Assembly (NCBI GenBank): GCA_017517965.1
Contig: JAFWXR010000017.1
Span: forward strand, 1 to 64,000
Length of the DNA stretch: 64,000 bases
Source of the DNA: Clostridia bacterium
Lineage (GTDB): Bacteria > Bacillota > Clostridia > Oscillospirales > Feifaniaceae
Direction of reading: 5' to 3'
Below are positions 4,989 through 51,312 of this stretch, one piece after another. The notes below the pieces were generated by a model. The model was not told the DNA's origin. It was given only the letters and a program-made list of their open reading frames with translations, and did no database searches. Within the stretch, counting starts at the first letter, position 1. Each line of letters begins with the position of its first letter. The position numbers and the translations under genes were made by a program.

Positions 4989-6986
4989 GTGGGCGATAAG
5001 GTTATAGCACTTGCAGGAAATCCAAACGTAGGCAAGAGTACGCTTTTCAATGCCCTGACGGGAATGAAGCAACATACGGGCAACTGGGCAGGTAAGACGG
5101 TGTCTAACGCAACGGGAAGGCATAAAAATTACATATTCGTTGATATTCCGGGCACGTATTCCCTGATGGCGCATTCGGCAGAGGAGGAGGTTGCCCGTGA
5201 CTTTATATGCTTTGGGAAGCCTGATGCGGTTGTGGCGGTCTGCGACTCGACTTGTATTGAACGAAACTTAAATCTCGTTTTGCAGATAATTGAAACGGGA
5301 AGAAAAGTGATAGTGTGCCTCAATCTTGCTGATGAGGCAAAAAGAAAGCATATTGATATAGACGTAGGTAAAATACAAAAAAGACTCGGCGTTCCCGTAA
5401 TACAGACGGTGGCGAGAGACCGTAAAAGTATAGAAAAAATAATATCCGTGCTTGATGAAAACAATGCGGAGAAGGGCATACAAATAGAGTACCCGAAGGT
5501 TATAGAGGATGCCGTGCAAGAACTTTTGCCTCATCTTGAAAAGTATAAAACCGATATAAGCAAGCGGTGGATTGCGCTACGGTTGCTTGACGGAAGTCTT
5601 ACTGATAAAATTTACGAATATATCTCTGCAGACGATAGTCTGAAAGAAACCGTCCGCAGTATGCAAAACGTGATAAATGAGCATATGATTGTTTCATCAA
5701 TTGTCAGAACTGCCGAACACATATGCGACGGTGCAGTCGTGTACAATGAACATAAATACAGTCCTAGAGATAAGAAAACAGACAAAATTTTAACGGGAAA
5801 GTTTTTGGCGTATCCGATAATGCTTGCTATGCTTGCGCTCATTTTCTGGATAACGATGGAGGGTGCAAATTACCCGTCGGCACTATTGTCGGAAGGTCTG
5901 TTTTTCCTGCAGGATAAGATATATGCTTTTCTTACGTGGATAAAATTGCCGACACTTCTGTGCGATGCACTTGTGTTTGGCGTATACAGAGTTCTTGCAT
6001 GGGTGGTGTCGGTAATGCTGCCACCGATGGCAATATTTTTCCCTCTGTTTACCTTGCTTGAAGATGCCGGTTATCTGCCGAGAGTGGCGTATAATCTTGA
6101 TAAGCCTTTCAAATGCTGTAATGCCTGCGGAAAGCAATCTCTTACAATGTGTATGGGCTTTGGCTGTAATGCAGTCGGCATTATGGGGTGCAGAATAATA
6201 GATTCACCGAGGGAGCGACTTCTCGCAATACTGACCAACAGTTTCGTGCCGTGTAACGGCAGATTCCCGATGATAATAACCATGATAACGGTGTTTTTGG
6301 TCGGCGGTGGTATATTTTCATCCGTGCTTTCGGCACTCATAATGACACTTGTTATACTTCTGTCGGTGGTAATGACCTTTACGGCGACAAAATTGCTGTC
6401 AAAAACGCTTTTAAAAGGCGTTCCGTCATCATTTACACTTGAATTGCCACCCTACAGAAAACCGCAGATATGCAAGGTCATAGTGCGCTCTCTGTTTGAC
6501 AGAACGGTGTTCGTTTTAGGCAGAGCGGTTGCCGTTGCCGCCCCCGCAGGACTTGTAATATGGGTTCTTGCAAACGTTATGATAGGGGATATGAGCCTGC
6601 TTTCGCATATATCGGCGTTCCTTGACCCGCTGGGCAGACTAATGGGGCTTGATGGTGTTATTTTAATCGCATTTATTTTGGGATTCCCTGCAAATGAGAT
6701 TGTTGTCCCCATAATGATAATGGCGTACACCGCAGGCGGCAGCCTGACAGAACTCGGGGCAGACGCCCTTAAAACGCTTTTTATATCAAACGGATGGACG
6801 CCCGTTACCGCAATTTGCGTACTGCTGTTTTCACTTATGCACTGGCCCTGCTCAACGTCACTCATAACCGTGAAAAAAGAAACGGGCAGCATAAAGTGGA
6901 CACTTATAGCAGCCTTACTCCCAACCGCCTTCGGTGTAATATCGTGCATACTCGTGAATTTGATAAGCAAAGCCTTCGGGGCATAA
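4989..6986 (+). CDS. feoB: FeoB ferrous iron transporter
   Basis: 665 residues from a GTG start at 4989. An N-terminal G protein domain carries the P-loop GNPNVGKST, the switch motif VDIPGTYSL and the base motif NLAD. A helical regulatory region leads to a polytopic membrane domain with Gate motifs (CNACGKQSLTMCMGFGCNAV and VPCNGRFP). It takes up Fe(II) across the inner membrane. GTG 4989 is preferred because AGAGG lies just upstream over the feoA stop and the domain begins at once (VGDKVIALAG). A TTG start at 4938 would read through feoA. The length fits the family without extensions. Confidence 0.95.
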   Translation: MGDKVIALAGNPNVGKSTLFNALTGMKQHTGNWAGKTVSNATGRHKNYIFVDIPGTYSLMAHSAEEEVARDFICFGKPDAVVAVCDSTCIERNLNLVLQIIETGRKVIVCLNLADEAKRKHIDIDVGKIQKRLGVPVIQTVARDRKSIEKIISVLDENNAEKGIQIEYPKVIEDAVQELLPHLEKYKTDISKRWIALRLLDGSLTDKIYEYISADDSLKETVRSMQNVINEHMIVSSIVRTAEHICDGAVVYNEHKYSPRDKKTDKILTGKFLAYPIMLAMLALIFWITMEGANYPSALLSEGLFFLQDKIYAFLTWIKLPTLLCDALVFGVYRVLAWVVSVMLPPMAIFFPLFTLLEDAGYLPRVAYNLDKPFKCCNACGKQSLTMCMGFGCNAVGIMGCRIIDSPRERLLAILTNSFVPCNGRFPMIITMITVFLVGGGIFSSVLSALIMTLVILLSVVMTFTATKLLSKTLLKGVPSSFTLELPPYRKPQICKVIVRSLFDRTVFVLGRAVAVAAPAGLVIWVLANVMIGDMSLLSHISAFLDPLGRLMGLDGVILIAFILGFPANEIVVPIMIMAYTAGGSLTELGADALKTLFISNGWTPVTAICVLLFSLMHWPCSTSLITVKKETGSIKWTLIAALLPTAFGVISCILVNLISKAFGA

Positions 6987-7019
6987 AAAAATAGCAAGTC
7001 GTATCGACTTGCTATTTTT
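6987..7019. terminator. Bidirectional terminator between feoB and gpmI
   Basis: A perfect 15-pair stem (6987-7001 with 7005-7019), loop TAT, with A-tract on one side and T-tract on the other. It lies between the convergent feoB and gpmI stops and can serve both. Confidence 0.85.
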
Positions 7020-7027
7020 GTTGTAAG

Positions 7028-8542
7028 TTATTTTATTATGCTTGTGCCGGACATTTCCGAAGGAATCGGGAGACCGAGGATTTCAAGCATTGTCGGTGCG
7101 ATGTCGCACAGCTTGCCACCGTCACGGAGACTGCAATCCTTACCCACTACAACGAAGGGTACGGGATTTGTCGTGTGTGCCGTGAAGGGTGAACCGTCGG
7201 GGTTGAACATAAAGTCGGCGTTACCGTGGTCGGCAGTAATAAGTGTTATACCGCCCATTTCCTTAACGGCTTCGACAACCTTGCCTACACAGGTGTCAAC
7301 CGTTTCAACAGCCTTTACAGCCGCTTCAAATATACCCGTGTGGCCTACCATATCGCAGTTTGCGAAGTTGAGAATTATAACGTCGTACTTGCCACTCTTT
7401 ATATTCTCAACACACTTGTCGCATACTTCGGGAGCACTCATCTCGGGCTGAAGGTCGTAGGTTGCAACCTTGGGGGAGTTAACGAGAACTCTGTCCTCAC
7501 CCTCGCTTACCGTTTCAACACCGCCGTTGAAGAAGAAGGTTACGTGTGCATACTTTTCGGTTTCAGCTATACGAAGCTGTGTCTTGCCGTTGTCTGCAAG
7601 ATACTGACCGAGTGTGTTGTCTAAACTCTGGGGCTTGAAAGCAACGTCAACGTTGGGCATTGATGCATCGTACTGCGTGAAGCATACGTAATGAACGTTC
7701 TGTCTGCCGCCACGTCTTTCAAAACCGTTAAATTCATCGTCAACAAACGTTCTTGTGATTTCTCTCGCACGGTCGGGACGGAAGTTGAAGAATACAACCG
7801 AGTCACCGCTCTTTATCATACCGTTTTTGTCGCATACAACGGGAAGTACGAATTCGTCCGTAACTTCTTGCGCATAAGACTTCTTAACGGCATCAACTGC
7901 ATCGGCATTTTCAACACCTTCGCCGTATACGAATGCGCTGTATGCCTTTTCAACACGTTCCCATCTGTTGTCACGGTCCATAGCGTAATATCTGCCTGTG
8001 AGTGTTGCAATCTTACCTACGCCGATTTCTGCCATTTTGTTTTCAAGGTCTGCAACGAAGTCTGCACCTGAAGTGGGGGACACGTCACGACCGTCAAGTA
8101 TACCGTGAACGTACACTTTCTCTAAACCGAACTTCTTTGCCATTTCAATGAGGGCGTAGAGGTGGTAATTGTGAGAATGTACGCCACCGTCAGACAGAAG
8201 ACCCATAAAGTGAATGGCACCGCCTGAATTTTTAGCGTTTTCGTAAGCTTTGACAAGCGCCTCATTCTCAAAGAATGTACCGTCGTCAATTTCTTTTGTA
8301 ATTCTGGTAAGTTCCTGATAAACTACACGGCCTGCACCGATGTTTGTGTGGCCGACTTCGGAGTTACCCATCTGACCGTCGGGAAGACCTACTGCCATAC
8401 CCGAAGCATCAAGTGTTGTGACGGGGCAGGTGGACATAAGTGAGTCCATAACGGGCGTCTTTGCCTTGTAGATGGCGTTGAAGTCACCCGCATCGTTCAT
8501 ACCGTAACCGTCAAGTATCATTAAAAGTAAAGGTTTTTTCAT
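7028..8542 (-). CDS. gpmI: 2,3-bisphosphoglycerate-independent phosphoglycerate mutase
   Basis: 504 residues, full family length. It interconverts 3- and 2-phosphoglycerate in the cytoplasm with two Mn ions and a phosphoserine intermediate. Visible features: LLMILDGYGM at the start with metal Asp, GNSEVGHTNIGAGR with the catalytic Ser, HGILDGRDVSP, and the C-terminal ITADHGNAD metal site. Third gene of pgk-tpiA-gpmI, 10 bases after tpiA, with an AGAGGT ribosome site. Regulation is shared with the operon promoter in front of pgk. Confidence 0.97.
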   Translation of the reverse strand: MKKPLLLMILDGYGMNDAGDFNAIYKAKTPVMDSLMSTCPVTTLDASGMAVGLPDGQMGNSEVGHTNIGAGRVVYQELTRITKEIDDGTFFENEALVKAYENAKNSGGAIHFMGLLSDGGVHSHNYHLYALIEMAKKFGLEKVYVHGILDGRDVSPTSGADFVADLENKMAEIGVGKIATLTGRYYAMDRDNRWERVEKAYSAFVYGEGVENADAVDAVKKSYAQEVTDEFVLPVVCDKNGMIKSGDSVVFFNFRPDRAREITRTFVDDEFNGFERRGGRQNVHYVCFTQYDASMPNVDVAFKPQSLDNTLGQYLADNGKTQLRIAETEKYAHVTFFFNGGVETVSEGEDRVLVNSPKVATYDLQPEMSAPEVCDKCVENIKSGKYDVIILNFANCDMVGHTGIFEAAVKAVETVDTCVGKVVEAVKEMGGITLITADHGNADFMFNPDGSPFTAHTTNPVPFVVVGKDCSLRDGGKLCDIAPTMLEILGLPIPSEMSGTSIIK

Positions 8543-8552
8543 TTTCTACCTC

Positions 8553-9323
8553 TTATTTGCTTGCTGCTGCAACGATTGCCGCAAAGTCGTTAGCCTTGAG
8601 TGAAGCACCGCCGATGAGACCGCCGTCAACGTTTACCTTTGAAAGAAGCTCGTCAGCATTAGCTGCATTCATTGAACCGCCGTACTGAATTGTTGTGCCT
8701 TCAGCAACTTCTTCACCGTAGAGACCTGCGATAACCGTTCTGATGTAAGCGTTAACTTCTTCAGCCTGATCGCTTGTAGCCGTCTTACCCGTGCCGATAG
8801 CCCAAACGGGTTCGTAAGCAACGATAACGTTGTTCTTAACGTCTTCAGCAGAAACGCCTGCAAGGTCAATCTTTATCTGCTTTGAAACTGTTTCGAAAGT
8901 GATACCCTGTTCTCTTTCAGCGAGAAGTTCGCCTACGCAGAGGATAACCTTAAGACCGCCTGCAAGAGCAGCCTTTGTACGAAGATTTACAGTTTCGTCT
9001 GTTTCACCGAAATACTGTCTTCTTTCGCTGTGGCCGATGATAACGTATTCTGCACCAACTGCCTTGAGCATGGGAACAGAGATTTCACCTGTGAAAGCAC
9101 CGCTTTCAGCCCAGTGAACGTTTTCAGCAGAAACCTTGATGTTTGAACCCTTAACTGCTTCAACTGCAGCGGGGATGCAAACGTAGGGAACGCCTACTAC
9201 AACGTCACAGTCAGCATCTTTTACGAGGGGCTTTATAGCATCGATAAGTTCGATTGCTTCAGCAGGTGTCTTATTCATCTTCCAGTTACCTGCGATAACT
9301 GCTTTTCTTACATTCTTTTTCAT
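8553..9323 (-). CDS. tpiA: Triosephosphate isomerase
   Basis: 256 residues, TIM barrel, converting dihydroxyacetone phosphate and glyceraldehyde 3-phosphate. Catalytic residues are visible: Lys in AGNWKMNKT, His in IIGHSERRQYFGE, and Glu in AYEPVWAIGTGKT with the mobile loop. The C-terminal phosphate site is YGGSMNAAN. The start has an AAGGAGAT ribosome site. It lies between pgk and gpmI on the same strand, with 54 and 9 base gaps. Confidence 0.98.
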   Translation of the reverse strand: MKKNVRKAVIAGNWKMNKTPAEAIELIDAIKPLVKDADCDVVVGVPYVCIPAAVEAVKGSNIKVSAENVHWAESGAFTGEISVPMLKAVGAEYVIIGHSERRQYFGETDETVNLRTKAALAGGLKVILCVGELLAEREQGITFETVSKQIKIDLAGVSAEDVKNNVIVAYEPVWAIGTGKTATSDQAEEVNAYIRTVIAGLYGEEVAEGTTIQYGGSMNAANADELLSKVNVDGGLIGGASLKANDFAAIVAAASK

Positions 9324-44539: not shown

Positions 44540-45346
44540 ATGGTCGCATCGTTTGTTATTCCGTTAAATTACGTATCAATGGCGCTCTCCGTAATAGCCA
44601 TAGTAGTGGCGGTTGCGTTGGTATCTGCACTTGGGAAGGCGGGCCTGCGTTCCTACGTGGTGGGTCTTGTTACGTTTATTTCAACTTATTATGTCACCGA
44701 TATAATTATGACTCTGCTCGTTATGCTGGGCTTTGGAAATGTCAGCAACGCGATATTTGACTTTGTAAAGCTTATTGTAAGTGTTGCTGTACAGGTGACG
44801 GCACTTCGTTTTTTTATGCACGTGTTCTTGAAGAGAAATACATTTGCGGTGTTCTACGGTGCAGGTGTCGGCTTTGCACTGGGTAATGCTTTTATAGAAT
44901 TGCTTTCGTCCGTAACCTACATTTCCGTTGCTACGCTTATGAAAGAGGGTGGCATTACACCTGAATTTCTCGAGATATACGAGCCGTATATGAAAGAAAT
45001 AGAAGCTCTGACTTTAGCGGAAAGCATTGCCGGTGTTATTTACCCCATAGTTATGACTGCCGTTTACGTTGCACTTGCATCGATTATAGGCCATGCGGTC
45101 AGGGGTGAACAGAAATATGCCTACTATGCAGCAGGCGGTTGGTTTGTTGCAGGAGGGTTACTCACTTTACAGGATATGTTCGGTTTGCGTGGTTGGACCA
45201 AAATCGTAACGTATATCGCATATATTGTGATTGCCGTCGTTCTTTGCAGATGGTCAAAAGAAAAATACGGCTTAAAACTTAAGTTCAATAAAGAGAGCGA
45301 TTATCATGCGCCTCTTTCAAGAAGGATAGAAAAGAAGAAAAAATGA
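44540..45346 (+). CDS. YhfC-like integral membrane protein
   Basis: 268 residues, about seven to eight helices. The region FYGAGVGFALGNAFIELLSS near residue 115, with a Glu in a helix after a glycine-rich turn, resembles the YhfC family (putative membrane metalloproteases of the CPBP/APH-1-like superfamily). The active-site pattern is incomplete, so catalytic activity is doubtful. C-terminal tail is basic (SRRIEKKKK). ATG 44540 follows an AGGA site. The last codons lie inside the left arm of an inverted-repeat element. Confidence 0.65.
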   Translation: MVASFVIPLNYVSMALSVIAIVVAVALVSALGKAGLRSYVVGLVTFISTYYVTDIIMTLLVMLGFGNVSNAIFDFVKLIVSVAVQVTALRFFMHVFLKRNTFAVFYGAGVGFALGNAFIELLSSVTYISVATLMKEGGITPEFLEIYEPYMKEIEALTLAESIAGVIYPIVMTAVYVALASIIGHAVRGEQKYAYYAAGGWFVAGGLLTLQDMFGLRGWTKIVTYIAYIVIAVVLCRWSKEKYGLKLKFNKESDYHAPLSRRIEKKKK

Positions 45347-45561
45347 TTGCGTATGGGCGTGTTCGCTTAGTGATGAATCGGTTTTGGATTGACATTTTCC
45401 GCCCATACTTCATAAAAAAATTCCGTAATACACAAAGTATTACGGAATTTTTATTATTTTGTCTAAACGAAAAATCTCTAACCCAAAACTGCTATGCCCA
45501 CAAAAACTATGTTTTTGAGCGAATAATCCCTAAGCGAACACGCCCTTGCAATCATTTTTTT
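45338..45561. repeat. Terminal-inverted-repeat element (MITE-like)
   Basis: Left arm 45338-45370 and right arm 45530-45561 are complementary over 13 bases (AAAAAATGATTGC), then a short mismatch (GTAT against TT on the other arm), then 16 bases (GGGCGTGTTCGCTTAG). The 224-base element contains a 15-pair hairpin (45416-45452) and GTATGGGCG (45351-45359), whose complement recurs at about 45390-45398. It has no convincing coding capacity. A target duplication cannot be seen because the ends are A/T runs. Either a small non-autonomous mobile element or a structured RNA region. Confidence 0.7.
45416..45452. terminator. Strong hairpin inside the inverted-repeat element
   Basis: Perfect 15-pair stem (45416-45430 with 45438-45452), loop CACAAAG, T-tract. 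Probably the terminator of the YhfC-like gene. Confidence 0.75.
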
Positions 45562-45610
45562 ATGTGTAATTCCTTATTTTAGGGTAAAAATAATCCTTGA
45601 GGTGAGGAAT

Positions 45611-46780
45611 ATGAGCGAGAGAACGTCACGAGTTATATTTGATGGGGAAAAGGCACGCATAAAACTGTTGAAATTTGATACCTGTGAGGCTGTGAGAATA
45701 GGGGCTGCTGCGGCGCTCCATTTCAAAGGCAAGATTGGGGTTATGGCAGATGATCGAAGTCTTGCAGGAGCGAAAAGTGCTGTTTTGTCGGGGATAATTA
45801 AAGCGGATTCGCAGGCACTTGATTACGGTATGGGCTTTGGCGCACTTCTCTCGTACTGCATAAGGAAGAATAACCTTGACGGCGGAATTATGCTTAATCT
45901 GAGAGACGGGACCTGCGGGATATATTTTTACGACAGATACGGGCTTAAGGTTTCGTTTGAAAGTTATAATGAACTAAAAAAGCTTCACGGTATGTTGCCT
46001 GACGGGGTGCTTGCCGCGCATATTCCTGACGAGAATGCATCAAGATGTGACATATCCGATTATGCAAAAGAGGTTGCCGTGCCTGATTTAAGCGGAATGT
46101 CGCTTCATTTCGAGTGTGGCAATATTTATGTGTCCGCGTGTGCCAAAGAAATATTTGAAAAGTGCGGTGTCAAATTGTTGCAACAGCAAACACCCGAGCA
46201 TATAACGTTGTGTTCGGACAGAGAGGGGCATTTTCTGTGGGGTAAGGATGAAAAATCGTGTCCCGTAACAAAAAATGAGATGAGTGCACTTCTTATAAAA
46301 ACGGCATCGGAAAACGGTACGGACAAAATAGCATATTCCTATCTCTGTCCTACGTTTTGCGACAGTTTATGCGAGATTTACGGAATAGAATATTCTAAAG
46401 TGTACGATTTTGCCGATAAGGATGACAGCTTTGCAAGAAAGTGTGTGGCAGATAATGCTGTTTGTTTTGATGCACTTCTTGCGGCAGTGCAGATATGCGG
46501 ATACCTTAAAGAAAATAATATAAGACTTGCGAAAGCAAAAGAGAATATTCCCTGCGGTGTAACAAAGGTTCAGAATATATGGATTCCATCCTCTCGCAAG
46601 GATTACGTGATACGGCGTCTTTCAGGCAGGATAGGAAGTGCGGCAAGGGTGAGGGTTTTGCCGTGCGTAACGGGCGGTCTTCGCCTTATGGTTGAGGCGT
46701 ATGATGAAGAATCGGCGGATGAGCTATGTTATTTTTATAAAAATGAGATATACCGACTCGCTGAAAATGCTGATGAGTGA
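45611..46780 (+). CDS. Degenerate phosphohexomutase-like protein
   Basis: 389 residues, shorter than active enzymes (about 450-580). Segments line up with the alpha-D-phosphohexomutase fold: AVRIGAAAALHFKGKIGVMADDRSLAGAKSA (in parts) for the first domain, NLDGGIMLNLRDGTCGIYF where active enzymes have the Ser-containing TASHNP loop, LSGMSLHFECGNIYVSACAKEIFEKCGV for the second domain, LCSDREGHFLWG where DPDADR would bind metal, and CVTGGLRLMVEAYDEESADEL where the phosphate site RPSGTEP would be. Every catalytic motif is altered, so a pseudoenzyme with ligand-binding or regulatory role is likely. ATG 45611 follows GAGGTGAGG. Upstream of RNase J. Confidence 0.68.
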   Translation: MSERTSRVIFDGEKARIKLLKFDTCEAVRIGAAAALHFKGKIGVMADDRSLAGAKSAVLSGIIKADSQALDYGMGFGALLSYCIRKNNLDGGIMLNLRDGTCGIYFYDRYGLKVSFESYNELKKLHGMLPDGVLAAHIPDENASRCDISDYAKEVAVPDLSGMSLHFECGNIYVSACAKEIFEKCGVKLLQQQTPEHITLCSDREGHFLWGKDEKSCPVTKNEMSALLIKTASENGTDKIAYSYLCPTFCDSLCEIYGIEYSKVYDFADKDDSFARKCVADNAVCFDALLAAVQICGYLKENNIRLAKAKENIPCGVTKVQNIWIPSSRKDYVIRRLSGRIGSAARVRVLPCVTGGLRLMVEAYDEESADELCYFYKNEIYRLAENADE

Positions 46781-46784
46781 AAAT

Positions 46785-46813
46785 TTGACATAAGAGCAAA
46801 TTTAAGATATAAT
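46785..46813 (+). promoter_or_regulatory. Consensus promoter of the RNase J gene
   Basis: Perfect TTGACA (46785-46790), 17 bases, TATAAT (46808-46813). Confidence 0.88.
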
Positions 46814-46831
46814 AATCGGAGTTGATTATAA

Positions 46832-46914
46832 CCGTGTATCCACTCACGCACGGGTAATATATATGTACGTAGAAATTTAATATTTTGAGGGATGAAAAAC
46901 GATCCCTCTTGTTT
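46832..46914 (+). promoter_or_regulatory. Structured 5' leader of the RNase J mRNA
   Basis: Hairpin CCGTG (46832-46836) with CACGG (46849-46853), then GAGGGA (46887-46892) with TCCCTC (46903-46908) followed by TTGTTTT, which is terminator-like. The leader between promoter and start is about 135 bases. Attenuation or autoregulation is possible. Confidence 0.5.
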
Positions 46915-46955: not shown

Positions 46956-48809
46956 ATGGCAGAAGAAACGAAAAAAACAAAAAAACACTATTACAGGCCG
47001 AAAAAGAAGACTCAGTCAAAGCCTGCTCAGGAAACAAAGAAAACTACAGATAAAAAGAAAAAAACTTCTCAGAACGTTAAACAGGCTCCCAAAAAGCCTG
47101 TGAAAAAACAATCTGCACCCAAAAAGAAAAAGACGGTTGTAGAGGACAAACTTCCCTTTAACGTGAAAGTTATTCCGCTTGGCGGACTTGGGGAAGTCGG
47201 AAAAAATATGACCGTAATTGAATACGGCAACGAGATGATTTGCGTGGATGCGGGAATGAGTTTTCCTGACGGAGATATGCCGGGTATTGACTACGTAATA
47301 CCGGACTACACGTACATCGAAAAGAATTTCGACAAGTTTAAGGGTATTGTCCTGACACACGGTCACGAGGATCATATAGGTGGTATTCCTTTCCTTCTTA
47401 AAAAGGTAAACGTACCGATATACGGCACGGACCTCACAATAGGCTTTGTAAAGAACAAGCTTGAAGAGCATAAACTTATAAAAAAGGCAAAACTCAACGT
47501 TATAACTGCAGGCTCTAAAGTAAAGATAGGCTGTTTTGAAATTGAATTTATACACACAAATCACTCTATTCCCGGCTCTGTTGCGCTTGCGATAAAGACA
47601 CCTGCAGGTGTGCTTCTGTTTACGGGCGACTTTAAGATAGACTCTACGCCTATACACACTCAGATGATTGATCTGGGCAGATTCGGTGAACTTGGTAAAG
47701 AGGGTGTGCTCGCACTTTTCTCTGACAGCACAAATGCTGAAAGACCGGGCTTTACTTCGAGTGAGAGGATAGTGGGTGAAACCTTCCATACACTCTTTAA
47801 AGGCACGAAAAAACGTATTATAATTGCAACGTTTGCTTCAAATATTCACCGTCTGCAGCAGATTATGGATGCGGCGGCAGAGCACGGAAGGAAGGTTGCA
47901 GTTTCGGGACGCAGTATGCTCTCGAATATAAAAACCGCAATTGAGCTTGGCGTAATGGAAGTGCCTAAGAATACTCTTATTGACCTTGCCAACATCAAAA
48001 ATTATGCAGATGATAAGCTTGTGCTCATAACAACGGGCAGTCAGGGTGAGTCGATGAGTGCGCTTGCGAGAATGGCACACGATGACCATAAGAAAGTTGA
48101 TATCGGACCGAATGATATGGTTATAATATCGGCAACACCTATCCCGGGTAACGAAAAAATGGTATCAAAAGTCATAAATGAACTGCTCGCACACGGTGCG
48201 GAAGTGGTTTACGAGCGTCTGCGTGATATACACGTTTCGGGACATGCCTGTCAGGAAGAACTTAAAATTATGATAGCGCTTACAAAACCGAAATTCTTTG
48301 TTCCCGTACACGGCGAAGTAAGGCAGACGGCAAAGCACGCCTCACTTGCTAAACAGGTAGGCTATGACGATGAGCATATTATGATGCTTGAAAACGGAAG
48401 TGTTCTTGAATTTACGAGAAATACCGCTAAGGTGACGGGAACGGTGCAGGCAGGAATAACGCTTGTTGACGGAAGCGGTGTTGGTGACGTCGGAAACATT
48501 GTTCTCCGTGACAGAAAGAAACTGTCGGAGGACGGTCTTATAATTGTTGTGGTTTCAATAGATTCTTCGGCAGGATACGTTGTGTCGGGTCCCGACATAG
48601 TGTCAAGAGGCTTTGTGTACGTCCGCGAAAGTGAAGACCTTATGGACGGTGCCAAAAGAGTGGTTGACAATCTGCTTAAAAAATATGAAGATAATTTCAA
48701 TCACGACTGGGCAGCAATCAAAAATGACATTAAGGATGCGCTTGGCACTTACGTTTATTCGCAGACCAAACGTTCCCCCATGATAATCCCGATAATTATG
48801 GATGTATAA
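46956..48809 (+). CDS. rnj: Ribonuclease J
   Basis: 617 residues. Metallo-beta-lactamase core with VLTHGHEDHIGGIPFLL (HxHxDH zinc site), IEFIHTNHSIPGSVALAI, LFTGDFKID, then the beta-CASP part with TTGSQGESMSALARMA and FFVPVHGEVR, and a C-terminal dimerisation domain. It has 5'-exo and endonuclease activity in mRNA decay and rRNA processing. Unusual is a leading extension of about 70 residues, very rich in Lys, Thr and Gln (KKTKKHYYRPKKKTQ and several KKKK runs), before the normal start LPFNVKVIPLGGLGEVGKN. ATG 46956 follows GGAGG. Own strong promoter. Confidence 0.95.
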   Translation: MAEETKKTKKHYYRPKKKTQSKPAQETKKTTDKKKKTSQNVKQAPKKPVKKQSAPKKKKTVVEDKLPFNVKVIPLGGLGEVGKNMTVIEYGNEMICVDAGMSFPDGDMPGIDYVIPDYTYIEKNFDKFKGIVLTHGHEDHIGGIPFLLKKVNVPIYGTDLTIGFVKNKLEEHKLIKKAKLNVITAGSKVKIGCFEIEFIHTNHSIPGSVALAIKTPAGVLLFTGDFKIDSTPIHTQMIDLGRFGELGKEGVLALFSDSTNAERPGFTSSERIVGETFHTLFKGTKKRIIIATFASNIHRLQQIMDAAAEHGRKVAVSGRSMLSNIKTAIELGVMEVPKNTLIDLANIKNYADDKLVLITTGSQGESMSALARMAHDDHKKVDIGPNDMVIISATPIPGNEKMVSKVINELLAHGAEVVYERLRDIHVSGHACQEELKIMIALTKPKFFVPVHGEVRQTAKHASLAKQVGYDDEHIMMLENGSVLEFTRNTAKVTGTVQAGITLVDGSGVGDVGNIVLRDRKKLSEDGLIIVVVSIDSSAGYVVSGPDIVSRGFVYVRESEDLMDGAKRVVDNLLKKYEDNFNHDWAAIKNDIKDALGTYVYSQTKRSPMIIPIIMDV

Positions 48810-49590: not shown

Positions 49591-51312
49591 TTAGTCTATA
49601 AGTTTTTGTGCGGCTGACTTGATAGTTTCCGTTATCTCTTCACAAGCCTTTGCCGAGTCTGCCTTCGCCGTAATGTAGAACTTTATCTTGGGTTCTGTAC
49701 CAGAAGGTCTGAATACGAGCGAGCAGTCGTTTTCAAGCTCGTAGAAAAGAACGTCGGAGGAGGGGAGACCTGTCTCTGTCTTTTCGCCCGTCTGAGTGTC
49801 TGTGATGTAGCCACTCTGGTAGTCACGGATTTTAAGAACTTTCATTCCTGCAATTTCCGTGGGGGCGTTAGCCCTGAGCTTCACACCCGTTTCCTTCATA
49901 CGTGCAAGACCGTCAAGTCCCGACATAGTGATGGATATAACACTTTCAAGGTAGTTGCCGTACGTATCGTACATTTCCTGCATTGCATCATACAGGCTCT
50001 TGCCCTGTTTTTTATACCAGCAAGCCATCTCTGCGATGAGAAGTGAAGCGTTTACAGCATCCTTGTCACGTGCATACGTGCCTGTGAGATAACCGTAACT
50101 CTCTTCAAAACCGAATATATATGTATATTCGCCGCTTGCTTCAAATTCTTTTATCTTTTCACCGATGAACTTAAATCCCGTAAGAACGTCAAACATCTTT
50201 ACGCCGTACTTGTCACAAACTGCTTTAGCCATATTTGTTGAAACGATACTCTTTACAGCGGCAGCATTTGAGGGGAACGTACCCATTTCCTTACGGCATC
50301 TGATTATAAAATCAAGAAGTAGTACACCCACCTGATTGCCTGAAAGTGTAACGTAGTCGCCTGCATTGTTTCTTACGACAATACCTGCTCTGTCTGCATC
50401 GGGGTCGGTACCGATGATAAGGTCAATATCCTGCTCACGAGCCATTTCTATTGCTCTTGTAAAGCCTGCCTTATCTTCGGGGTTGGGTGACTTTACGGTG
50501 GGAAAATTACCGTCAATTGTCATCTGCTCTGCAACGGTAATAACGTGCTTGAAACCGATTCTCTTAAGCATTTCGGGAACAAGTCGGTAACCTGCACCGT
50601 GGAAAGGTGTGTAAATAACTTTGAAAGAGTCGGCAAGTTCTTTTACGATGTCACCGCAGACAGACTGCTCAAGCACTTTTGCAAGATACTTTTCGTCCAT
50701 CGCATTTCCCATCATTTCGATGAGACCTGCATTCTTCGCCTCTTCAAAATCCATTGTCTTGACATCTTCGAAGATGTCAATCTGAGTGAGTCTGTCAGAA
50801 ATCTTTTTTGCATGGTCGGGCGGAAGCTGTGCACCGTCTTCCCAGTATACTTTGTAGCCGTTGTACTCCTTGGGATTGTGGCTTGCAGTAACGTTTACAC
50901 CTGCTATGCAACCGTTTTCACGGAGCGCGAAAGAAAGCTCGGGTGTGGGACGAAGTTCGTCAAAAAGATATGCCTTTATACCGTTTGCCGCAAGAACACA
51001 CGCAACTTCTTTTGAAAAGAGTTCACTGTTGTTTCTTGAGTCGTAGGCTATGGCAACGCCTCTTTTCTTTGCATCGTCACCGCTTCCTGCTATAAGGTCT
51101 GCAAGTCCCTGTGTCGTATACCTTACGGTATATACGTTCATCATATTCAGACCTGCACCCATTGTGCCGCGAAGACCTGCCGTTCCGAAATCGAGCATTT
51201 TGATAAAGCGGAATTTTATATCCTCATCATCGGTGAGTGATTTAAGTTCTGCCTTCGTCTGCTCGTCCACGTAGGGACTTTCAATCCATTTTTTGTAGTT
51301 CTCGAGATACAT
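49591..51312 (-). CDS. pgm: Phosphoglucomutase
   Basis: 573 residues, converting glucose 6- and 1-phosphate. The catalytic Ser is in VTASHNPKEYNGYK, the metal loop is IIGTDPDADRAGI, the sugar-specificity loop is FGFEESYGYL, and the phosphate site is VFRPSGTEPKIKFY. It is of the long PgcA/Firmicutes type. Last gene of the glycogen operon, 4 bases after the GH13 gene, linking glycogen turnover with glycolysis. It gives a good intact comparison for the degenerate homologue at 45611. Confidence 0.95.
   Translation of the reverse strand: MYLENYKKWIESPYVDEQTKAELKSLTDDEDIKFRFIKMLDFGTAGLRGTMGAGLNMMNVYTVRYTTQGLADLIAGSGDDAKKRGVAIAYDSRNNSELFSKEVACVLAANGIKAYLFDELRPTPELSFALRENGCIAGVNVTASHNPKEYNGYKVYWEDGAQLPPDHAKKISDRLTQIDIFEDVKTMDFEEAKNAGLIEMMGNAMDEKYLAKVLEQSVCGDIVKELADSFKVIYTPFHGAGYRLVPEMLKRIGFKHVITVAEQMTIDGNFPTVKSPNPEDKAGFTRAIEMAREQDIDLIIGTDPDADRAGIVVRNNAGDYVTLSGNQVGVLLLDFIIRCRKEMGTFPSNAAAVKSIVSTNMAKAVCDKYGVKMFDVLTGFKFIGEKIKEFEASGEYTYIFGFEESYGYLTGTYARDKDAVNASLLIAEMACWYKKQGKSLYDAMQEMYDTYGNYLESVISITMSGLDGLARMKETGVKLRANAPTEIAGMKVLKIRDYQSGYITDTQTGEKTETGLPSSDVLFYELENDCSLVFRPSGTEPKIKFYITAKADSAKACEEITETIKSAAQKLID

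What the first reader, a model, noticed from the sequence alone, without database searches (positions are those of the whole stretch)
45611..46780. Free-standing degenerate phosphohexomutase next to RNase J
Seen: segments follow the phosphohexomutase fold from first to last domain, but TASHNP is replaced by NLRDGT, DPDADR by SDREGH, and RPSGTEP by CVTGGL. An intact pgm at 49591 shows what the motifs should be. Known: in this superfamily the Ser, the metal Asps and the phosphate loop are essential. Inference: a pseudoenzyme retained as a sugar-phosphate sensor, partner subunit or regulator. Its conserved reading frame and good ribosome site argue against decay.
Basis: partly seen in the sequence, partly recalled or inferred. 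Interest (0 to 1): 0.68.

Follow-up and report, generated by a model that had tools for sequence, protein, structure and literature searches.

The report
Dead sugar-mutase that outlived its partner
The gene makes a protein with the complete fold of a sugar-phosphate mutase but none of its catalytic motifs. It is the rear half of a larger sugar-nucleotide enzyme whose front half has been lost here and, separately, in at least five related lineages. That points to a non-enzymatic job for the leftover half, although which molecule it works on is not shown.

Summary
The 389-aa ORF (45611-46780, +) folds as a complete four-domain phosphohexomutase (AlphaFold pLDDT 91, Z about 31 to solved mutases). 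The Ser, metal and phosphate motifs are gone, and so is the sugar loop. Relatives in the same order (Oscillospirales-like Clostridia) and in other phyla are the C-terminal half of 710-900-aa fusions: nucleotidyltransferase + left-handed beta-helix + the same motif-less mutase. No intact motif was found in about 145 members. The window gene is that module without its nucleotidyltransferase half. A tree needs six separate losses of that half. In ten standalone genomes, four of them 99% complete, no orthologous nucleotidyltransferase half was detected. Standalone copies are under purifying selection (omega about 0.16). rnj lies directly downstream in 45 of 69 testable loci across the order, but here it has its own perfect promoter, so co-function is suggested, not shown. 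Best reading: a conserved non-catalytic module, probably a ligand-binding or protein-binding regulator, still useful without its enzyme half. The partner is unknown. Main counter-evidence: the window copy is among the family's most divergent, and the gene is dispensable in many relatives.

The parts
45611..46780 (+). free-standing pseudo-phosphohexomutase, 389 aa, four domains
45598..45607 (+). ribosome-binding site (tgaggtgagg)
   Evidence: direct reading
45896..45913 (+). NLRDGT, in place of the catalytic-serine loop (residues 96-101)
46214..46231 (+). SDREGH, in place of the metal loop DGDADR (residues 202-207)
46418..46438 (+). KDDSFAR, in place of the sugar loop GGEDSGH; D272, A275 and R276 match a new family-conserved D..AR pattern
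46664..46681 (+). CVTGGL, in place of the phosphate loop RASGTEP (residues 352-357)
45338..45560 (.). MITE-like element with terminal inverted repeats directly upstream of the ORF; four further large matches at 89-91% plus a weaker one at 74% in this genome
46785..46813 (+). perfect sigma-70-type promoter TTGACA-17-TATAAT for rnj, 5 nt after the pseudomutase stop
46887..46908 (+). terminator-like hairpin in the rnj leader
46956..48809 (+). RNase J (rnj), conserved downstream neighbour

Best explanation
The gene encodes the pseudo-phosphohexomutase module of an ancient nucleotidyltransferase / left-handed beta-helix / pseudomutase fusion, stripped of its nucleotidyltransferase and helix half and kept as an independent protein. 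Shown: descent from the fusion, the full mutase fold, family-wide loss of the catalytic motifs, repeated loss of the nucleotidyltransferase half, and selection on other standalone copies. Inferred: it works without catalysis. It keeps the four-domain cleft, with a remodelled sugar loop (D272, A275, R276), probably binds a sugar phosphate, nucleotide sugar or similar ligand there, and changes the activity of a partner protein. In the fusions that partner would be the attached nucleotidyltransferase; in standalone forms it must be something in trans, for which RNase J (the conserved neighbour), c-di-AMP enzymes or other sugar nucleotidyltransferases are candidates.
For: Closest relative G003 (same family) is a 791-aa fusion matching the window protein over residues 27-388 (35%, E 2e-44), with rnj next door. 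All 68 module copies checked in the order and the named fusions from Firmicutes, Cyanobacteria, Chloroflexi and others lack the Ser, metal and phosphate motifs. Ten standalone genomes lack the fusion's nucleotidyltransferase: best remaining hits are around 1e-49 or weaker, GlgC in size and mostly paired with a GlgD-like gene, against 1e-157 to 1e-174 in fusion genomes; four of the ten are 99% complete. Parsimony on the module tree gives 6 losses. Two genomes (G413, G400) are caught mid-way: eroded nucleotidyltransferase, intact pseudomutase. Standalone G264/G327: dN/dS 0.16 at dS 0.72, inside the range of fused modules in the same genus (0.08-0.22). Neutral simulation of the window ORF to 70% identity gave 5.9 stops on average and none stop-free in 300 runs; the real ORF has none. 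Precedents: PGM5, an inactive phosphohexomutase that still binds substrate (PMC7761743); GlmM, which binds and inhibits CdaA (PMC8573169); GMPPA, a non-catalytic nucleotidyltransferase paralogue that regulates GMPPB (PMC11228364).
Against: No ligand, partner or phenotype was tested. The window copy is the joint least conserved member (55% of the columns conserved in fusions, whose mean is 77%) and sits on a long branch (1.46 against 0.66 for G003), so relaxed constraint is possible. The gene is absent from 6 of 8 family genomes and 15 of 39 genomes of genus g124. Reverse reductions exist in family f14: nucleotidyltransferase kept, mutase domains I-III lost, so the pseudomutase is not always the half that stays. 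rnj has its own promoter in the window.
Confidence: 0.6

Rival explanations
1. Decay intermediate: the fusion is on its way out. The nucleotidyltransferase half goes first and the pseudomutase lingers with weak or no function.
For: Gene absent in 6 of 8 family genomes and 15 of 39 of genus g124; eroded fusions exist; the window copy is among the least conserved on a long branch.
Against: Full open frame where neutral decay would give many stops; high-confidence complete fold; dN/dS about 0.16 in other standalones, where five f3 genomes with 43-60% identity all keep the standalone form; six separate lineages.
Confidence: 0.22
2. Dedicated RNase J partner: the pseudomutase binds RNase J and couples RNA decay to sugar-phosphate status.
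For: rnj directly downstream, same strand, in 45 of 69 loci with room in the order sample and 20 of 20 in genus g124; five of the six standalone lineages keep rnj next door.
Against: rnj has a perfect promoter of its own after the pseudomutase stop in G000, G003, G012 and G035, so it can be expressed alone; one standalone (G316) sits between a dnaA-like and an rnpA-like gene with no rnj; the 44 named fusions with room but no rnj include all those from deep Firmicutes, Cyanobacteria and Chloroflexi that had room; six f1 genomes keep rnj without the gene.
Confidence: 0.2
3. c-di-AMP regulator, working like GlmM on CdaA: the pseudomutase docks on the diadenylate cyclase or acts with GdpP.
For: gdpP follows rnj in about a dozen of the examined loci and lies divergent from fusions in others; all eight tested genomes encode a DAC cyclase; B. 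subtilis and S. aureus GlmM inhibit the cyclase by direct binding (PMC8573169, PMC6368335).
Against: gdpP is not beside the window gene; the cyclase gene is on another contig; the GlmM interface residues were not tested here.
Confidence: 0.12
4. The gene is half of a split enzyme whose nucleotidyltransferase is encoded elsewhere in this genome, in the part missing from the assembly.
For: The genome is only 75.7% complete.
Against: In nine other standalone genomes, four of them 99% complete, no such half was detected; in the window nothing of it lies between the upstream gene and the ORF.
Confidence: 0.06

Closest known systems
Nucleotidyltransferase / LbH / phosphohexomutase-like fusions of Firmicutes, Cyanobacteria and Chloroflexi (N-terminal half scores best, below the curated cut-off, against mannose-1-phosphate guanylyltransferase NF052502)
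   Same: The window protein is homologous over nearly its whole length to their C-terminal half and shares the loss of all catalytic motifs
   Different: The nucleotidyltransferase and helix half is missing; no dedicated Pfam or NCBIfam model covers the module of the window protein at its cut-off
GlmM / phosphomannomutase-phosphoglucomutase (alpha-D-phosphohexomutases)
   Same: Four-domain fold, matched over the full length at Z 26-31
   Different: Catalytic Ser, metal Asps, sugar loop and phosphate loop are all replaced; 389 against about 450 aa
Vertebrate PGM5 (aciculin)
   Same: A phosphohexomutase without mutase activity
   Different: PGM5 keeps its active site and still binds glucose-1-phosphate (PMC7761743); here the motifs themselves are gone
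GMPPA, the non-catalytic regulator of GMPPB
   Same: A dead homologue in sugar-nucleotide metabolism that acts on an active nucleotidyltransferase (PMC11228364)
   Different: GMPPA is a dead nucleotidyltransferase, not a dead mutase; an analogy only
B. subtilis and S. aureus GlmM with CdaA/DacA
   Same: A phosphohexomutase-fold protein that binds and regulates another enzyme (PMC8573169, PMC6368335)
   Different: GlmM is also an active enzyme; no such interaction was tested for this protein

Membership tests
alpha-D-phosphohexomutase superfamily (fold) | four-domain fold | tested here: met
   pLDDT 91, Z 30.9 over 367 residues
alpha-D-phosphohexomutase superfamily (enzyme) | catalytic phosphoserine loop (T/S)ASHNP | tested here: not met
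   NLRDGT
alpha-D-phosphohexomutase superfamily (enzyme) | metal loop DGDADR | tested here: not met
   SDREGH
alpha-D-phosphohexomutase superfamily (enzyme) | sugar loop GGExSGH | tested here: not met
   KDDSFAR
alpha-D-phosphohexomutase superfamily (enzyme) | phosphate loop RxSGTEP | tested here: not met
   CVTGGL
alpha-D-phosphohexomutase superfamily (enzyme) | mutase activity | not testable with these tools
   needs an assay
NTase-LbH-pseudomutase fusion family | C-terminal motif-less mutase module | tested here: met
   grouped with the G003 fusion at 99 support
NTase-LbH-pseudomutase fusion family | N-terminal nucleotidyltransferase and beta-helix | tested here: not met
   absent from the gene and the locus and not found in the genome as assembled
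RNase J accessory protein | conserved genomic link with rnj | tested here: met
   45 of 69 loci with room
RNase J accessory protein | common transcription with rnj | tested here: inconclusive
   perfect promoter and a terminator-like hairpin between the genes in the window
RNase J accessory protein | physical binding to RNase J | not testable with these tools
   needs pull-down or a complex structure
GlmM-like cyclase regulator | cyclase-binding residues (B. subtilis GlmM D151, E154, D194) | not tested
   known from PMC8573169; not mapped on this protein

The most novel reading that the evidence does not exclude
A family of bacterial pseudo-phosphohexomutases, first evolved as the sensory half of a sugar-nucleotide enzyme, has repeatedly become an independent regulator that links cell-wall sugar supply to RNA turnover (RNase J) or to c-di-AMP signalling.
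Probability: 0.2. Interest if true: 0.85.

Novelty: new variant of a known kind. Interest (0 to 1): 0.5.

Why it matters
Here a whole clade of motif-less mutases is fused to an enzyme half that has been shed at least six times while the dead half stayed. That gives a natural experiment on what the dead half does by itself, and its frequent neighbour (RNase J, sometimes GdpP) names testable partners. Annotations such as phosphomannomutase or GlmM would be wrong for these genes.

Tried and rejected
Split-gene idea: rejected for the standalone class, because no orthologous nucleotidyltransferase half was detected in ten genomes; it stays formally open for this 75.7%-complete genome. Frame-broken or contig-edge cases (G172, G289, G301, G324, G039) were not counted as standalone in the tree. 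The first adjacency count (39 loci) was an undercount: my ORF picker let long antisense ORFs hide rnj in GC-rich genomes; redone over all six frames (its 'alone' class still holds a few contig-edge or eroded fusions). A strict asymmetry claim (only the pseudomutase is ever kept) was dropped after G389, G203 and G100 (L239, L243, L244) proved to keep the nucleotidyltransferase half with at most a mutase remnant; G274 gave a similar short frame but was not inspected. Rfam found nothing credible near the gene. The named-genome search with the window protein alone found nothing, and the 12-row alignment was too divergent for that search. Searches of the held papers found no description of these fusions or of an rnj link; most subscription journals are not in that library.

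Full report
What was checked. The ORF at 45611-46780 is intact, begins with ATG after a good ribosome site and has no stop over 389 codons. Its base composition by codon position resembles its neighbours. A profile of 65 relatives hits solved phospho-sugar mutases at 2e-50. The AlphaFold model (pLDDT 91.2, pTM 0.90) matches them end to end. The motif replacements are as described, and the sugar loop is replaced too.

What it descends from. A search of 59 related genomes showed that the best relatives are the C-terminal halves of about 800-residue ORFs. Pfam finds NTP_transferase, a hexapeptide beta-helix and a weak PGM domain I in them. The N-terminal half scores best, below the curated cut-off, against mannose-1-phosphate guanylyltransferase. 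The closest, G003 in the same family, is a 791-aa fusion, 35% identical to the window protein in the shared part. Order-wide the module occurs in more than 100 of 394 genomes. Named fusions outside it include Desulforamulus, Moorella, Pseudanabaena and Chloroflexi MAGs. None of the examined copies, inside or outside the order, has an intact serine, metal or phosphate motif. The module was therefore probably dead long before the window gene lost its partner. The sugar loop has become a conserved D..AR pattern inside the order (D in 58 of 68, R in 47 of 68), which the window protein keeps (D272, A275, R276).

Loss of the nucleotidyltransferase half. Free-standing modules were found in the window genome, in five genomes of one genus of family f3, in genus g124 of f23, in G380 (f23) and in G316 (f26). 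No trace of the nucleotidyltransferase half was found near them in six frames (for the loci then held), and a profile search of ten of these genomes found only weaker relatives: GlgC- and GlgD-like pairs and short nucleotidyltransferases. Four of the ten are 99% complete. On a tree of 87 modules the fewest changes between fused and free-standing is six (quick search, SH-aLRT support only). The window protein pairs with the G003 fusion at 99 support. In G413 and G400 the nucleotidyltransferase is visibly eroded while the pseudomutase is whole. The reverse also occurs: G389, G203 and G100 in family f14 keep the nucleotidyltransferase half and have lost mutase domains I-III. The two halves are therefore separable both ways.

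Is it maintained? For free-standing G264/G327, dN/dS is 0.16 at dS 0.72, against 0.075 for their RNase J; fused modules of the same genus give 0.08-0.22. Values for f3 (0.13-0.16) rest on nearly saturated dS and are only supportive. The window gene has no close relative, so its own dN/dS cannot be measured. Neutral simulation of its ORF to 70% identity never stayed free of stops in 300 runs, while the real divergence is larger. Against this, it keeps only 55% of the columns conserved among fusions (fusion mean 77%), and the gene is missing from many relatives.

Neighbourhood. RNase J lies directly downstream on the same strand in 45 of 69 order-sample loci with room and in all 20 loci of genus g124. 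In many of these gdpP (c-di-AMP phosphodiesterase) follows, and in G003 an L9-like ribosomal-protein gene and a dnaB-like gene after it (the last two read from sequence only). The deep fusions of other phyla lack the rnj link. In the window, rnj starts from a perfect TTGACA-17-TATAAT promoter 5 nt after the pseudomutase stop, with a terminator-like hairpin in its leader. G003, G012 and G035 also have exact promoters there. The pair is thus conserved but not a simple operon, and the link may partly be inherited gene order. Six f1 genomes without the module keep rnj with no remnant of it within the fetched 1.5 kb upstream.

How it most likely works. Shown: fold, motif loss, origin and repeated separation. 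Inferred: a non-catalytic role through ligand or protein binding. Precedents show that phosphohexomutase folds can do this: PGM5 binds substrate without turnover (PMC7761743), and GlmM binds and blocks CdaA (PMC8573169, PMC6368335). I do not commit to one partner above 0.2.

Limits. One genome at 75.7% completeness, no close relatives, no coordinates for surface analysis, no complex prediction, and a paper library that lacks most subscription journals.

Noticed in passing
window 45338-45560: MITE-like element with about 40-bp terminal inverted repeats just upstream of the ORF studied here; four other large copies (89-91% identity) and a weaker one elsewhere in the genome.
   Followed up: partly
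window 46785-46908: rnj has a perfect sigma-70 promoter and a leader with a terminator-like hairpin. G003 has the same arrangement with a different stem; 10 of 38 such intergenic regions hold a terminator-like hairpin against 0.5 in simple shuffles. Possible attenuation of RNase J.
   Followed up: partly
L239, L243, L244 (G389, G203, G100; family f14): Reverse reduction: the nucleotidyltransferase half kept, at most a mutase domain IV remnant left; L239 and L244 are divergent from gdpP.
   Followed up: partly
L085 (G316) 5926-7176: Standalone pseudomutase between a dnaA-like gene and an rnpA-like gene, near the likely replication origin, without rnj (neighbours named from sequence only).
   Followed up: no
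L095 (G061) 7337-9206: RNase J reads as two overlapping ORFs (316 and 318 aa): a frameshift or an assembly error.
   Followed up: no
own genome G000: Only two PF02878 proteins above the cut-off (573 and about 500 aa) and no recognisable GlmM, normally essential; the assembly is 75.7% complete, so it may simply be missing.
   Followed up: no
L029 (G033) 6574-8880: Fusion whose nucleotidyltransferase signature is degenerate (GGKHPRLMPL instead of GGEGTRLRPLT) in the family where the standalone form is common.
   Followed up: partly
window 44540-45346: 268-aa membrane-like protein upstream of the element with no Pfam or NCBIfam match.
   Followed up: no
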